A stretch of DNA of 20,106 nt from NCBI GenBank assembly GCA_030612485.1, contig JAUWNS010000021.1, positions 1-20,106 of the forward strand, given 5' to 3'. Both the position numbers and the translations under genes were made by a program. Shown piece after piece: positions 6,731-18,388 of the stretch. Each line of letters starts with the position of its first letter. The stretch's first letter is position 1. Below the pieces are notes generated by a model. It was not told the origin of the DNA. It ran no database searches and saw nothing but the letters and a program-made list of their open reading frames with translations. This DNA comes from Candidatus Bipolaricaulota bacterium (GTDB lineage: Bacteria > Bipolaricaulota > Bipolaricaulia > UBA7950 > UBA9294).

Positions 6731-7909
6731 ATGGGAAAACATGAATTCATTGAACAGGCCCTGCAAAACCTGCATGAACAAGGGCTTTACAACACCATCC
6801 GTACGATCGAAAGCTCGGTCGGAGCGTGGGTGGTAGTGGAAGGGAAGCGTGTGCTCAACATGTGCTCGAACAACTACCTCGGGTTTGCCAACGACGAGCG
6901 GTTGTGCACGGCGGCGAAGAAGGCAATCGATGACTATGGTGTGGGGCCAGGCGCTGTCCGCTCGATCGCCGGGACGATGAGCCTGCATATCGAGTTAGAG
7001 GAGAAGCTAGCCGAGTTCAAGGGAACGGAATCAGCTCTCTCTGTCCAATCCGGCCTTAACACCAACCTGGCGACGATCCCCCTTCTCATGGGGAAGGAGG
7101 ATGTAATCTTCACAGATGAGCTGAATCACGCTTCGATCATCGACGGCTGTCGGCTCACCAAGGCGAAGCGCGTGATCTTCCCCCACCGCGATGTCGCTGC
7201 ACTGCGGCGGCTCCTTGAGGAGAACAAGGAGATTGAGAAGAAGCTGATCATTACCGACGGGGTCTTCTCGATGGACGGCGACCTCGCTCCGCTCCCTGGG
7301 ATCGTGGACGCGGCCGAGGAGTACGAAGCAATGGTGATGGTCGACGATGCGCACGGCGAGGGAGTACTGGGGAGCCACGGCCGGGGGATCGTCGATCACT
7401 TCGGACTGCACGGCCGGGTCGACATCGAGGCGGGGACGATGTCCAAGGCGTTCGGGGTGATGGGGGGCTACGTCGCCGGAGGCGCGGATATCGTGGAGTA
7501 CCTCCGGCAACGGGCGCGACCGTTCCTCTTCTCCTCCGCTGCTACACCTCCAGATGTCGCGGCGTGCATCGCGGCGATCGATATCCTGCAACAGACCGAC
7601 GAGCCGGTGAAGAAGCTGTGGGAGAACGCGCGTTACTTCAAGGAGAATATGGTAGCCCTCGGGTTCGACACCGGGGCGAGCGAGACCCCGATCACGCCGG
7701 TGATGCTCGGCGAGGCCAAGACGGCGTGGGACTTCTCCAAGCGGCTCTTTTCAGAAGGGGTCTTTGGTACGGCAATCGCCTTCCCTACCGTTCCCCGCGG
7801 CAAGGCCCGCATCCGGGTGATGCTCTCCGCGGCCCATTCCAAGGACGACCTCGACTTCGCACTCGAGAAGTTCGGGAAAGTAGGGAAGGAATTAGGGGTG
7901 ATCTCGTGA
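6731..7909 (+). CDS. Alpha-oxoamine synthase, glycine C-acetyltransferase (Kbl)-like
   Basis: A 392-residue PLP enzyme of the alpha-oxoamine synthase family, full length. Motifs: SNNYLGF (46-52), R-x3-GT-x3-H-x-x-LE (77-90), DELNHASIIDG with His133 that stacks on PLP, DGVFSMDGD (176-184), Asp205/His208 in VDDAHGEGVLG, and PLP-binding Lys239 in TMSKAFG. A C-terminal Arg in ARIRVML is placed to bind the substrate carboxylate. It resembles the Kbl-related proteins of Thermotoga and Bacillus, which either split 2-amino-3-ketobutyrate with CoA to glycine and acetyl-CoA or condense an amino acid with an acyl-CoA. GGAGGAGG precedes the start; the gene overlaps ridA by one base (TGATG). No threonine dehydrogenase is adjacent, so a role in threonine breakdown is not shown. 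Exact substrates unknown. Confidence 0.9.
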   Translation: MGKHEFIEQALQNLHEQGLYNTIRTIESSVGAWVVVEGKRVLNMCSNNYLGFANDERLCTAAKKAIDDYGVGPGAVRSIAGTMSLHIELEEKLAEFKGTESALSVQSGLNTNLATIPLLMGKEDVIFTDELNHASIIDGCRLTKAKRVIFPHRDVAALRRLLEENKEIEKKLIITDGVFSMDGDLAPLPGIVDAAEEYEAMVMVDDAHGEGVLGSHGRGIVDHFGLHGRVDIEAGTMSKAFGVMGGYVAGGADIVEYLRQRARPFLFSSAATPPDVAACIAAIDILQQTDEPVKKLWENARYFKENMVALGFDTGASETPITPVMLGEAKTAWDFSKRLFSEGVFGTAIAFPTVPRGKARIRVMLSAAHSKDDLDFALEKFGKVGKELGVIS

Positions 7910-8292
7910 TGGCAAAGAAAGCGATCGAAACAAGCAAAGCTCCTGGCGCAGTGGGCCCTTACTCCCAGGGGATACGTGCCGGTGACCTTGTCTTCGTCTC
8001 CGGGCAGCTCCCTGCCAACGCAGAAGGGGTACTGATTATCGACGACATCGCTGCGGCAACGCGCCAGAGCCTGGAGAACGTCAATGCTGTACTGAGCGCA
8101 GCCGGGGCGCAGATGAGCGACGTGGTCAAGGCGACCGTCTTCCTCACCGATATGGGGGATTTTAGCGCGATGAACAAGGTCTACGGGGAATTCTTCTCCG
8201 ATCCATTTCCTGCTCGTGCGTGTATTGAGGTCGCTGCGCTACCGAAGGGAGCGAAGGTGGAAATAGAAGTGATCGCTTCATTACACGGATGA
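7909..8292 (+). CDS. RidA family protein (enamine/imine deaminase-like)
   Basis: A 127-residue protein of the YjgF/YER057c/UK114 family. It has GPYSQGIRAGDLVFVSGQ near residues 17-34, FLTDMGDF in the middle, and a C-terminal FPARACIEVAALPKGAKVEI containing the Arg and Glu of the trimer-interface active site. Active RidA enzymes hydrolyse reactive enamine/imine intermediates released by PLP enzymes. Its place between a PLP enzyme and a peptidase, overlapping both (one base upstream, ATGA downstream), suggests that it detoxifies or finishes a product of this pathway. Family call is firm. The exact job is inferred from context. Confidence 0.92.
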   Translation: MAKKAIETSKAPGAVGPYSQGIRAGDLVFVSGQLPANAEGVLIIDDIAAATRQSLENVNAVLSAAGAQMSDVVKATVFLTDMGDFSAMNKVYGEFFSDPFPARACIEVAALPKGAKVEIEVIASLHG

Positions 8293-9320
8293 AGTTCTTC
8301 GATACGCACTGCGATACCGTGATTAAGGTCCTCGACGGATCGCTCGACTTTCAGGCCGGGGAGGGGAGTGGGCACCTCTCCCTCCCTGGGATGCTCTCGG
8401 CTGGAAGCTGTGCCCAGGTATTCGCCTGCTTCGTGTTGAGCGAGCGCCATCCCGAGAAGGAACGCGAGACGGCCGAGGCGATGATCCGCACCATCAACGA
8501 GATGGCCACAAAGAGTGAGGGCAAGATGGAGGTCGTACGCACCGCATCCGAACTGCGTGCGGCGTGCGATGGCGGCCCGATCGCTGCCCTGATCGGCCTG
8601 GAGGGGGCCGACCCACTGGAAGGTCGTGCGGAGAACTTGCACCATTTCTACGAGCTCGGAGTGCGTGATCTGATCCTCGCTTGGAAGGATAACCCCTTCT
8701 CCGGAACGGCCTTTGGAACGAACACCCCCCTTAGCAAAGAGGGGAGAAAACTAATCGCGCTTACAGAGGAACTAGGAGTAATGGTCGATGTTTCCCACCT
8801 CTCCGATTCCGCGTTTAAGGACGTCTGCGAAATCACTAAGCGGCCGTTCATTGCCAGCCACTCCAACTGTCGCGCCATCTGCCCGAGCAAGCGCAACCTG
8901 ACCAATGCAATGATCCGCACCCTAGCCGATCGCGGCGGGGTGATGGGGATCAACCTCGCATCAGGATTCCTCGACCCCGAGATCTACCAACAGGAGATGG
9001 CCTACCGGAGGGCGTTTCGCTCTGAAGGAGAAACGCCCGAGGCGACGAAGCGGATGCGTGAGCAGATTGCCACGATTCCGCGTCCATCGATCGACTGGGT
9101 CGCAAAGCACATCCGCCACGCGATCGATATCGGTGGAGAGGACGTCATCGGCCTCGGCGGTGACCTCGATGGAGACGTAACCTTGCCGCTTGAGATAAAC
9201 GGGATTGCCGACTATGTGAAGATTCCCGATCTGCTCTGTCGAGTCGGGCTTCGCATCCGTCAGGTGGAGAAGGTTTGCTACCAGAACCTCGAGCGCGTCT
9301 TCACTGAAGTTCTTTGGTAG
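8289..9320 (+). CDS. Membrane dipeptidase-like zinc peptidase, family M19
   Basis: A 343-residue protein of the renal-dipeptidase family (amidohydrolase fold). Visible metal-site residues: His7 and Asp9 in FDTHCDT, Glu105 in LIGLEGADPL, His170 in VDVSHLS and His191 in IASHSNCRAICPSKRNL; GLGGDLDG near the end supplies the substrate Asp. There is no signal peptide, so it acts in the cytoplasm. M19 enzymes cut dipeptides and accept D-residues at the C-terminal position. It is coupled to ridA by ATGA and ends the operon; the next gene is convergent 41 bases away, with no obvious terminator in the gap. A C-terminal remnant of a second such gene lies at 18305-18388. Confidence 0.92.
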   Translation: MKFFDTHCDTVIKVLDGSLDFQAGEGSGHLSLPGMLSAGSCAQVFACFVLSERHPEKERETAEAMIRTINEMATKSEGKMEVVRTASELRAACDGGPIAALIGLEGADPLEGRAENLHHFYELGVRDLILAWKDNPFSGTAFGTNTPLSKEGRKLIALTEELGVMVDVSHLSDSAFKDVCEITKRPFIASHSNCRAICPSKRNLTNAMIRTLADRGGVMGINLASGFLDPEIYQQEMAYRRAFRSEGETPEATKRMREQIATIPRPSIDWVAKHIRHAIDIGGEDVIGLGGDLDGDVTLPLEINGIADYVKIPDLLCRVGLRIRQVEKVCYQNLERVFTEVLW

Positions 9321-18291: not shown

Positions 18292-18304
18292 AAACCGTTC
18301 CTAA

Positions 18305-18388
18305 GGGCCAGGACTCCGCACCCGTCAAGTGGAGAAAGCCTGCTACCAGAACTTCGAGCGTGTCTTCTGCGACGTGTTACGTGACTAG
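18305..18388 (+). pseudogene. C-terminal remnant of an M19 dipeptidase gene
   Basis: The frame behind the stop at 18302-18304 reads GPGLRTRQVEKACYQNFERV then FCDVLRD and a TAG (18386-18388). The intact M19 protein of this window ends GLRIRQVEKVCYQNLERV then FTEVLW, so the remnant matches its last 25 or so residues almost position for position, and the DNA is similar too (for example TGCTACCAGAAC in both). Everything upstream of this tail is gone; the third AOS gene ends only 13 bases earlier. The differences are mostly at third codon positions or conservative, so it comes from a diverged paralogue, not from a recent copy. It has no start codon and is not expected to be functional. Confidence 0.85.

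What the first reader, a model, noticed from the sequence alone, without database searches (positions are those of the whole stretch)
6731..18388. Candidate undescribed dipeptide/aminoketone locus: three AOS enzymes with M19 dipeptidase, RidA, Ddl-like ligase, dipeptide epimerase, peptide importer and GntR regulator
Seen: three alpha-oxoamine synthase genes within 11.5 kb, with a dipeptide epimerase (DxD motif present), an M19 dipeptidase, a Ddl-like ligase, RidA, a family-5 peptide importer and a FadR-type regulator. Known: the epimerase and M19 families work on dipeptides with D-residues; AOS enzymes join amino acids to acyl-CoA, or cleave 2-amino-3-ketoacids; RidA removes imines. Inference: the locus imports or makes a dipeptide, changes its stereochemistry, splits it and feeds the amino acid to AOS chemistry. 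I know of no characterised pathway with this gene set. Murein-peptide salvage alone would not need three AOS enzymes or a ligase.
Basis: partly seen in the sequence, partly recalled or inferred. Interest (0 to 1): 0.75.

Follow-up and report, generated by a model that had tools for sequence, protein, structure and literature searches.

The report
New enzyme clade beside dipeptide epimerase
This bacterial gene cluster appears to import and break down small peptides that contain mirror-image amino acids, and it carries an unstudied branch of a well-known enzyme family whose usual chemistry may have been changed.

Summary
The host looks like a Bipolaricaulota (inferred; its genome is not held). 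Two neighbouring units are present. (A) AOS1-RidA-M19 (6731-9320): AOS1-like and RidA genes lie beside M19 in 23 of 30 related loci; AOS1 looks Kbl-like. (B) GntR, importer, AOS2, dipeptide epimerase, AOS3 (10379-18291). Its core recurs beyond close relatives: with E. coli YcjG as independent query, an epimerase lies within 6 kb of AOS3 in 22 of 56 loci and in 0 of 69 loci of other AOS. FabG-like genes show the reverse (1 of 56 against 21 of 69). AOS3 is one clade (56 rows, 98%); AOS3 and AOS2 are parted from 79 other AOS rows with 100% support. AOS3 keeps the catalytic Lys, Asp and His, but positions that are Asn, Ser and His-Ala-Ser in other AOS are mostly replaced. Most likely it is a PLP enzyme acting on the alpha-carbon of amino acids freed from D-residue peptides, possibly a racemase. 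That chemistry is inference. The Ddl may be housekeeping.

The parts
6731..7909 (+). AOS1: alpha-oxoamine synthase of the BioF/Kbl type, most likely 2-amino-3-ketobutyrate CoA ligase (glycine C-acetyltransferase)
   Evidence: TIGR01825 593.6 bits (cut-off 535.4), PRK06939 529.3 (460), but TIGR01822 414.4 of 493 not met. Same residues as E. coli Kbl at positions 50, 79, 136-138 and 185
7909..8292 (+). RidA family imine/enamine deaminase
   Evidence: PF01042 144.6 bits; TIGR00004 164.5 of 106.25. The ORF listing starts the frame at 7564; the domain begins near residue 118 of it
8289..9320 (+). M19 (renal dipeptidase family) dipeptidase
   Evidence: PF01244 258.4 bits; best solved matches are M19 dipeptidases. 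AOS1-like, RidA and M19 together in 23 of 30 Bipolaricaulota M19 loci
9362..10309 (-). D-alanine--D-alanine ligase family; membership in the pathway doubtful
   Evidence: PRK01372 290.2 of 243 bits; next to AOS3 in L114 (61% identical); within 6 kb of AOS3 in 1 of 56 loci
10360..10388 (+). promoter-like site before the GntR gene (TTGACA-17-TATCCT)
   Evidence: consensus match only, 10 of 12; 14 sites found in the region against 10.2 expected in shuffles
10379..11044 (+). GntR/FCD regulator
   Evidence: PF00392 58.1, PF07729 66.3. An ATG at 10406 follows the -10-like box and may be the true start
11297..12835 (+). SBP_bac_5 binding protein
   Evidence: PF00496 335.3 bits; best NCBIfam model DppA 196.6 of 1005, not met, so the cargo is not fixed by score
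12847..12878 (+). terminator-like hairpin (14 pairs) between binding protein and permease genes
   Evidence: 13 such sites found against 11.4 expected in shuffles; this one has the longest stem of the 13
12894..13898 (+). DppB-type permease
   Evidence: PF00528 141.6 bits; no NCBIfam cut-off met
13867..14760 (+). DppC-type permease
   Evidence: PF00528 118.5 and PF12911 58.5 bits; D,D-dipeptide permease model 355.8 of 434 not met, Opp2C (nickel transporter permease) 320.2 of 300 met
14799..15893 (+). AOS2: divergent alpha-oxoamine synthase, on the same side of the tree as AOS3
   Evidence: PF00155 141.8; best NCBIfam bioF 272.1 of 426.45; one clade in the tree (24 rows, 99%)
16003..17106 (+). 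dipeptide epimerase of the enolase superfamily (DxD at residues 317-319; Asp24 where the B. subtilis Ala-Glu epimerase has Arg24)
17188..18291 (+). AOS3: conserved uncharacterised AOS clade (catalytic Lys219, His111, Asp185, His188, Arg344 kept; Thr29, Tyr112 and Pro159 at positions that are Asn, Ala and Ser in Kbl)
   Evidence: model pLDDT 94.3, AOS fold

Best explanation
Unit B (10379-18291) is a catabolic locus for small peptides with D-residues. An importer that borrows an ATPase from elsewhere brings in the peptide (inferred). The enolase-type epimerase inverts one residue of a dipeptide so that dipeptidases can cut it (family function known elsewhere; substrate here inferred). Dipeptidases such as the M19 of unit A release the amino acids (inferred). 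AOS3, and AOS2 where present, then act on the alpha-carbon of a freed amino acid through a PLP carbanion (inferred). Shown: AOS2 and AOS3 are distinct clades, keep the catalytic residues, and have changed positions that are constant in the other AOS compared; AOS3 repeatedly sits with genes for D-residue peptides and rarely or never with the FabG-like, threonine or biotin genes that accompany some other AOS. Inferred: classical acyl-CoA condensation was lost or altered, and racemisation or epimerisation of the amino acid is the likeliest new reaction. Unit A is a neighbouring Kbl-like AOS1-RidA-M19 operon for amino-acid and peptide catabolism.
For: E. coli YcjG as query finds an epimerase within 6 kb of AOS3 in 22 of 56 loci and in 0 of 69 control AOS loci; FabG-like 1 of 56 against 21 of 69; threonine dehydrogenases 0 of 56 against 3 (MDR) and 4 (SDR) of 69; BioB 0 of 56 against 6 of 69. 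Importer permease 19 of 56 against 0 of 69; class C beta-lactamase-like hydrolase 10 of 56 against 0 of 69. NlpC/P60-SH3 peptidase and M19 with AOS3 in Chloroflexota; M55 D-aminopeptidase in L156 and Ensifer; AOS3-RidA-DadA-like in Variovorax, which resembles the P. aeruginosa dad operon of dehydrogenase, Rid protein and racemase (PMC9714295, passages). The epimerase label changes at least 14 times on the AOS3 tree. Clades and residues.
Against: No substrate or reaction is shown. 34 of 56 AOS3 loci have no YcjG-like epimerase within 6 kb, and 21 of 56 have none of the peptide-related families I counted, some because contigs end. A 7-row Bipolaricaulota subclade (L115, L119-L122, L125, L127) and eight Bacteroidota-side loci have other neighbours. 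The racemase idea gets no general support from DadA or DadX: DadA 1 of 56 against 2 of 69, DadX 0 against 0, so Variovorax is a single case; in Ensifer an annotated alanine racemase lies about 9 kb from AOS3. AOS3 keeps the carboxylate-binding Arg position (54 of 56) and the PLP-stacking His, so condensation remains possible. One permease passes a nickel-transporter model. Several queries came from these loci; one search was done to remove that bias. Control loci are not matched by phylum.
Confidence: 0.5

Rival explanations
1. AOS2 and AOS3 are still acyl-CoA-dependent Claisen enzymes: they take an amino acid freed from the imported peptide and make an aminoketone; their changed residues only alter amino-acid or acyl choice.
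For: Same fold (TM about 0.9 to SPT, Kbl and BioF); Lys, Asp and both His kept in 56 of 56, the Arg368 position in 54 of 56. In the ThAOS paper residue Val79 differs between AOS enzymes and changing it widens amino-acid choice (PMC11906848, passages), so loop changes can tune substrate.
Against: FabG-like partners, near 21 of 69 other AOS, are near 1 of 56 AOS3. FadD, FabH and FabD are absent near AOS3 (0 of 56 each) but also nearly absent near the controls (1, 0 and 0 of 69), so they do not decide. Positions that are Asn50, Ser185 and His89 in 79 of 79 comparison rows are replaced in 56, 55 and 51 of 56 AOS3 rows (one gap at position 50), and Ala137 of His-Ala-Ser in 56 of 56 (Ala in 73 of 79).
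Confidence: 0.3
2. AOS3 is a substitute alanine racemase that supplies or removes D-alanine in genomes without Alr.
For: Among 100 Bipolaricaulota genomes the Alr C-domain is not found in 12 of 17 with AOS3 and in 24 of 83 without, while 88 of 100 have a strong PF07478 (Ddl family) match.
Against: 28 of 32 AOS3 genomes outside the phylum have Alr; 7 of the 12 are one AOS3 subclade, so the counts are not independent; genome completeness is not told; 24 genomes lack both. The search itself misses some: it did not ring in the control Corynebacterium glutamicum, which by recollection has an alr gene.
Confidence: 0.1
3. Ordinary murein-peptide salvage (dpp/ykf-like) in which the AOS genes are chance neighbours.
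For: M55, NlpC/P60, M19, LysA and YcjG-like genes occur around AOS3; the M19 gene is near MurQ, AnmK and NagA in L231 and near NagA and NagB in L230.
Against: The AOS3-epimerase link is 22 of 56 against 0 of 69 and lies on separate deep branches, which chance does not give. The window epimerase lacks the Arg24 of the B. subtilis Ala-Glu enzyme, though that is weak evidence.
Confidence: 0.1

Closest known systems
alpha-oxoamine synthases (Kbl, BioF, SPT, ALAS, CqsA)
   Same: Fold, PLP lysine, Asp, His and C-terminal Arg
   Different: AOS2 and AOS3 pass none of the AOS models; AOS3 mostly replaces the Asn50, Ala137, Ser185 and His89 positions of Kbl
Bacillus subtilis dpp-ykf (D-aminopeptidase, importer, Ala-Glu epimerase, NlpC/P60; recalled, not fetched)
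   Same: Importer plus epimerase here; NlpC/P60 and M55 in relatives
   Different: No AOS gene there (recalled); the window shows no NlpC/P60 or M55 gene, and its epimerase has Asp24 in place of Arg24
Pseudomonas dad operon (DadA, DadY of the Rid family, DadX racemase; PMC9714295 passages)
   Same: Variovorax AOS3-RidA-DadA-like has the same kinds of partner
   Different: AOS3 is an AOS-fold PLP enzyme, DadX is not (recalled); in the window RidA stands with AOS1 and no DadA-like gene was found
tdh-kbl threonine catabolism
   Same: AOS1 scores as glycine C-acetyltransferase; in L228 an AOS1-like gene with RidA and M19 faces an SDR threonine dehydrogenase
   Different: No threonine dehydrogenase gene seen in the window; RidA and M19 are added; the L228 AOS itself is below the Kbl-type cut-offs

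Membership tests
alpha-oxoamine synthase family (AOS3) | AOS fold | tested here: met
   AlphaFold2 model pLDDT 94.3; the 50 PDB matches listed are AOS enzymes, TM (query length) up to 0.91
alpha-oxoamine synthase family (AOS3) | PLP lysine, Asp and His (Kbl K244, D210, H213, H136) and carboxylate Arg368 | tested here: met
   56 of 56 for the first four, 54 of 56 for Arg
alpha-oxoamine synthase family (AOS3) | His-Ala-Ser motif, called strictly conserved in AOS enzymes (PMC6148460, passage) | tested here: not met
   position 137 is Tyr in 39, Phe in 16, Ser in 1 of 56; Pro in 22 of 24 AOS2; Ala in 73 of 79 others
any named AOS (BioF, Kbl, SPT, ALAS, CqsA-like) | curated score for AOS2 or AOS3 | tested here: not met
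   AOS3 best bioF 209.8 of 426.45; AOS2 best bioF 272.1 of 426.45
alpha-oxoamine synthase family (AOS2, AOS3) | acyl-CoA-dependent condensation | not testable with these tools
   needs enzyme assay
Kbl / glycine C-acetyltransferase (AOS1) | curated scores | tested here: inconclusive
   PRK06939 529.3 of 460 met, TIGR01825 593.6 of 535.4 met, TIGR01822 414.4 of 493 not met
dipeptide epimerase | DxD motif and nearest solved relatives | tested here: met
   DxD in 121 of 121 rows, and in 25 of 25 rows from AOS3 loci and query proteins, 23 of them distinct; best PDB chains 3q45, 3jva, 1jpm
L-Ala-D/L-Glu epimerase | Arg24 that holds the Glu side chain in the B. subtilis enzyme (role recalled) | tested here: inconclusive
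   Asp24 in the window, Gly or Met in 116 of 121 rows; NF041118 214.9 of 500 not met. But 3rit, another dipeptide epimerase, also has Arg there, so the residue alone does not decide
M19 dipeptidase | PF01244 over cut-off | tested here: met
   258.4 of 26 bits
dpp/ykf murein-peptide operon | NlpC/P60 peptidase with epimerase and importer | tested here: not met
   no NlpC/P60 match among the 20 window ORFs scanned; present beside AOS3 in Chloroflexota relatives
amino-acid racemase | racemisation of a free amino acid | not testable with these tools
   needs assay

The most novel reading that the evidence does not exclude
AOS2 and AOS3 found a new PLP enzyme class, derived from alpha-oxoamine synthases but no longer using acyl-CoA, that racemises or epimerises amino acids released from D-residue peptides. 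It would be an AOS-fold counterpart of DadX, spread over at least five phyla and paired with a dipeptide epimerase so that stereochemistry is corrected at both the peptide and the amino-acid level.
Probability: 0.25. Interest if true: 0.8.

Novelty: new variant of a known kind. Interest (0 to 1): 0.55.

Why it matters
An enzyme family defined by carbon-carbon bond formation would contain a widespread branch tied instead to D-residue peptide breakdown. That would correct automatic '8-amino-7-oxononanoate synthase' labels such as several. It could also help give a physiological setting to dipeptide epimerases that are not of the Ala-Glu type, whose roles are, to my recollection, largely unassigned. 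Cultured hosts (Nitratireductor, Ensifer, Variovorax) make it directly testable.

Tried and rejected
One pathway with all three AOS: rejected, because AOS1-RidA-M19 also occurs apart from AOS3 and AOS2 is rare. AOS3 as general Alr substitute: the Bipolaricaulota counts were suggestive, but 28 of 32 AOS3 genomes elsewhere have Alr. A changed Tyr31 in AOS3 (written in my note): wrong; later alignments put that Tyr at a position that is Tyr in all groups, and the changed position is Thr29. A Tyr in the C-terminal loop that looked special was dropped, because one search aligns it one column off. The missing N-terminal helix: not used, because my ORF starts were not trimmed. AOS3 as obligate partner of AOS2: not favoured, because AOS3 mostly occurs without AOS2 (2 of 56 loci have it within 6 kb) and AOS2 of G053 has no AOS3 match. 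In-window searches for promoters, inverted repeats and RNA families gave nothing that changes the reading. Literature: 'dipeptide epimerase' with 'oxoamine synthase' and with '8-amino-7-oxononanoate synthase' gave 0 papers; 'Bipolaricaulota' with 'dipeptide' and 'peptidoglycan' 0; searches for an AOS or Kbl racemase listed 3 and 2 papers, of which I saw listings, and passages of two; these passages describe no such enzyme. All this covers only the open-licence library.
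Full report
What is there. The window encodes, in order, two BPD_transp_2 permeases, a PhnD-PhnC-PhnE-PhnE set, AOS1, RidA, M19, a Ddl on the minus strand, GntR/FCD, SBP_bac_5, DppB, DppC, AOS2, an enolase-superfamily epimerase, AOS3 and a DUF5671 protein. No whole genome is held for it. Its AOS3 and epimerase relatives include proteins named Candidatus Bipolaricaulota, the best genome match is a Bipolaricaulota record (L001, 77%), and AOS3 branches with Bipolaricaulota rows, so I take it for a member of that phylum. 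No ATPase gene for the peptide importer is in the window, and one of its permeases passes a nickel-transporter model (Opp2C 320.2 of 300), so the cargo is inferred from the neighbours.

Three AOS genes, two stories. AOS1 scores as BioF/Kbl-type acyltransferase (593.6 of 535.4 bits) and glycine C-acetyltransferase (529.3 of 460), but below TIGR01822 (414.4 of 493). The M19 protein found 33 of 100 Bipolaricaulota genomes. Of the 30 loci returned, 23 have AOS1-like and RidA genes beside M19 within the fetched flanks; 7 do not, some at contig ends. The AOS is of two kinds there, 75-91% or 47-48% identical to AOS1. In L228 a divergent gene is an SDR L-threonine 3-dehydrogenase (435 bits to 7cgv); similar genes stand in L229 and L238 by reading; the L228 AOS itself is below the Kbl-type cut-offs. 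In L231 the M19 gene lies near MurQ, AnmK and NagA, and in L230 near NagA and NagB. Unit A is therefore an amino-acid and peptide catabolic unit of its own, with a link to cell-wall salvage in some genomes. In G086 it lies far from AOS3, on another long contig. In the window and in L110 (an M19 fragment at the contig edge) it adjoins unit B.

The AOS3 clade. AOS3 was found in 17 of 100 genomes of the phylum of G001, 5 of 247 (phylum of G004), 2 of 249 (order of G003), 11 of 249 (class of G006), 1 of 246 (phylum of G002) and 8 of 247 (phylum of G007) at E up to 1e-85. Each group was entered through a genome already known to hold it, and at most 8 candidates a genome were scored. Cultured strains hold it on plasmids: Ensifer, Nitratireductor OM-1, S. 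meliloti AK83, Rhizobium sullae, Variovorax VAI-C. In a tree of 159 AOS rows, AOS3 (56 rows) is one side of a branch with 98% local support, AOS2 (24) with 99%, and the 79 others (69 other AOS, 8 AOS1-like, E. coli Kbl and BioF) are parted from both with 100% (FastTree; L175 and L246 are long branches).

Residues. Against E. coli Kbl numbering, position 50 is Asn in 79 of 79 other rows and in none of 56 AOS3 rows (Thr 43, Cys 9, Ser 2, Ile 1, gap 1). Position 185 is Ser in 79 of 79 others; in AOS3 it is Pro 50, Ala 4, Gly 1, Ser 1. Position 89 is His in 79 of 79 and in 5 of 56. Position 137, the Ala of His-Ala-Ser, is Ala in 73 of 79 and Tyr or Phe in 55 of 56. Lys244, Asp210, His213 and His136 are kept in all 159 rows, and Arg368 in 54 of 56 AOS3 rows. 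AOS2 is intermediate (Thr 16, Asn 8 at position 50; His in 23 of 24 at 89; Pro 22 of 24 at 137; Pro 10, Ser 8, Thr 6 at 185). A review calls His-Ala-Ser strictly conserved in the family (PMC6148460, passages). That Asn50 and Ser185 contact the substrate carboxylate in Kbl and ALAS is recalled. The AlphaFold2 model (pLDDT 94.3) matches SPT, Kbl, BioF and ALAS structures at TM about 0.9.

Neighbours. Around 56 AOS3 loci and 69 loci of other AOS returned by the same pattern scan (not matched by phylum), within 6 kb: epimerase 23 against 0, permeases 19 against 0, binding protein 17 against 0, class C beta-lactamase-like hydrolase 10 against 0, LysA 10 against 0, NlpC/P60 7 against 1, M19 3 against 0, M55 2 against 0, RidA 2 against 0, AOS2 2 against 0, Ddl 1 against 0, M42 0 against 1. 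At least one of 13 peptide-related families is present in 35 of 56 against 2 of 69. Because several of these queries came from the loci themselves, I repeated with E. coli proteins: YcjG 22 of 56 against 0 of 69 (p 1.3e-9), FabG 1 against 21 (p 1e-5), BioB 0 against 6, BioD 0 against 4, BioA 3 against 1, MDR threonine dehydrogenase 0 against 3, SDR 0 against 4 (this query is from L228, not E. coli), FadD 0 against 1, FabF and AcpP 1 against 0, FabH, FabD, DadX and MpaA 0 against 0, DadA 1 against 2. P values treat loci as independent, which they are not. On a tree of the 56 AOS3 proteins the epimerase label needs 14 changes and the importer label 7; contig ends add false changes, but the link lies on several deep branches, so it is old or repeatedly regained.

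Typical arrangements. Bipolaricaulota: importer-epimerase-AOS3 (L111-L113), importer-AOS2-epimerase-AOS3 (window, L110), importer-AOS3-epimerase (L116), importer-LysA-epimerase-AOS3 with Ddl (L114). Chloroflexota: epimerase-M19-NlpC/P60-AOS3 (L158, L161; L160 has extra called frames between). Rhizobiales: importer-serine hydrolase-epimerase-AOS3 (L243) or importer-serine hydrolase-AOS3-M55 (L242; an annotated alanine racemase lies about 9 kb upstream). Variovorax: epimerase, beta-lactamase-like hydrolase, MFS, M81, AOS3, RidA, DadA-like (L246; best model D-amino acid dehydrogenase 152.7 of 383 bits, not met). Against the theme: seven Bipolaricaulota loci of one subclade; four of them (L115, L119, L120, L122) lie by an ABC/FtsX-type set (Pfam shown for L120), while L121, L125 and L127 are short. 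Eight Bacteroidota-side loci (L009, L010, L169-L174) have a GT2-like gene, a YdiJ-like FAD/FeS protein, AOS3 and a LysA-like gene (families scanned on L010).

Epimerase. Nearest solved relatives are 3q45, 3jva and 1jpm; 3jva and 1jpm are deposited as dipeptide and Ala-Glu epimerases, 3q45 is a dipeptide epimerase by recollection. DxD is kept in 121 of 121 rows, and in 25 of 25 rows from AOS3 loci and queries, 23 of them distinct. The 1jpm Arg24 is Asp24 in the window alone and Gly or Met in 116 of 121 rows, which argues weakly against an Ala-Glu substrate: the role of Arg24 is recalled, and 3rit, another dipeptide epimerase, also has Arg there.

Mechanism. Peptide import, dipeptide epimerisation, cleavage, then PLP chemistry at the alpha-carbon of the freed amino acid is the simplest reading. 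The carbanion machinery is kept while constant positions near it are changed, and FabG-like partners are nearly absent. Racemisation is favoured because racemases, D-amino-acid dehydrogenases and Rid proteins form known sets (PMC9714295, passages) and Variovorax shows such a set with AOS3. That is one locus, and DadA-like genes are no commoner near AOS3 than near controls. It remains inference.

Alr test. Among 100 Bipolaricaulota genomes the Alr C-domain is not found in 12 of 17 with AOS3 and in 24 of 83 without. Seven of the 12 belong to one AOS3 subclade. Outside the phylum 28 of 32 AOS3 genomes have Alr. The search rang in 8 of 14 control genomes and not in Corynebacterium glutamicum, which by recollection has the gene, so absences are soft. 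AOS3 is not a general Alr substitute.

Verdict.

Noticed in passing
window 6170-6500: Remnant of a third PhnE-like permease (53-54% identical to the C-terminal parts of both intact PhnE genes).
   Followed up: partly
window 18412-18484: Borderline tRNA match (RF00005, 29.8 of 29 bits) that ARAGORN does not call; reads like a tRNA with an altered 3' part.
   Followed up: no
window 3504-4850: PhnE-type permease with an RDD domain at its N terminus (PF06271).
   Followed up: no
L196-L225 (Bipolaricaulota): AOS1-RidA-M19 is a conserved trio (23 of 30 loci) whose AOS gene comes in two quite different versions (75-91% or 47-48% identical to AOS1).
   Followed up: partly
100 genomes of the phylum of G001: No Alr C-domain is found in 36 of 100, while 88 of 100 have a strong PF07478 match (98 of 100 at any listed E; that family also rings in all 14 controls, archaea included), so the D-alanine source of many is unclear.
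   Followed up: partly
L009, L010, L169-L174: Conserved operon of a GT2-like protein, sometimes DUF4922, a YdiJ-like FAD/FeS protein, AOS3 and a LysA-like decarboxylase on the Bacteroidota side.
   Followed up: partly
L115, L119, L120, L122: In one Bipolaricaulota subclade AOS3 follows an ABC ATPase and FtsX/MacB-type permease with two unknown proteins.
   Followed up: no
L152, L175, L002: DUF819 membrane proteins beside or near AOS3 in three lineages; perhaps a peptide or amino-acid transporter.
   Followed up: no
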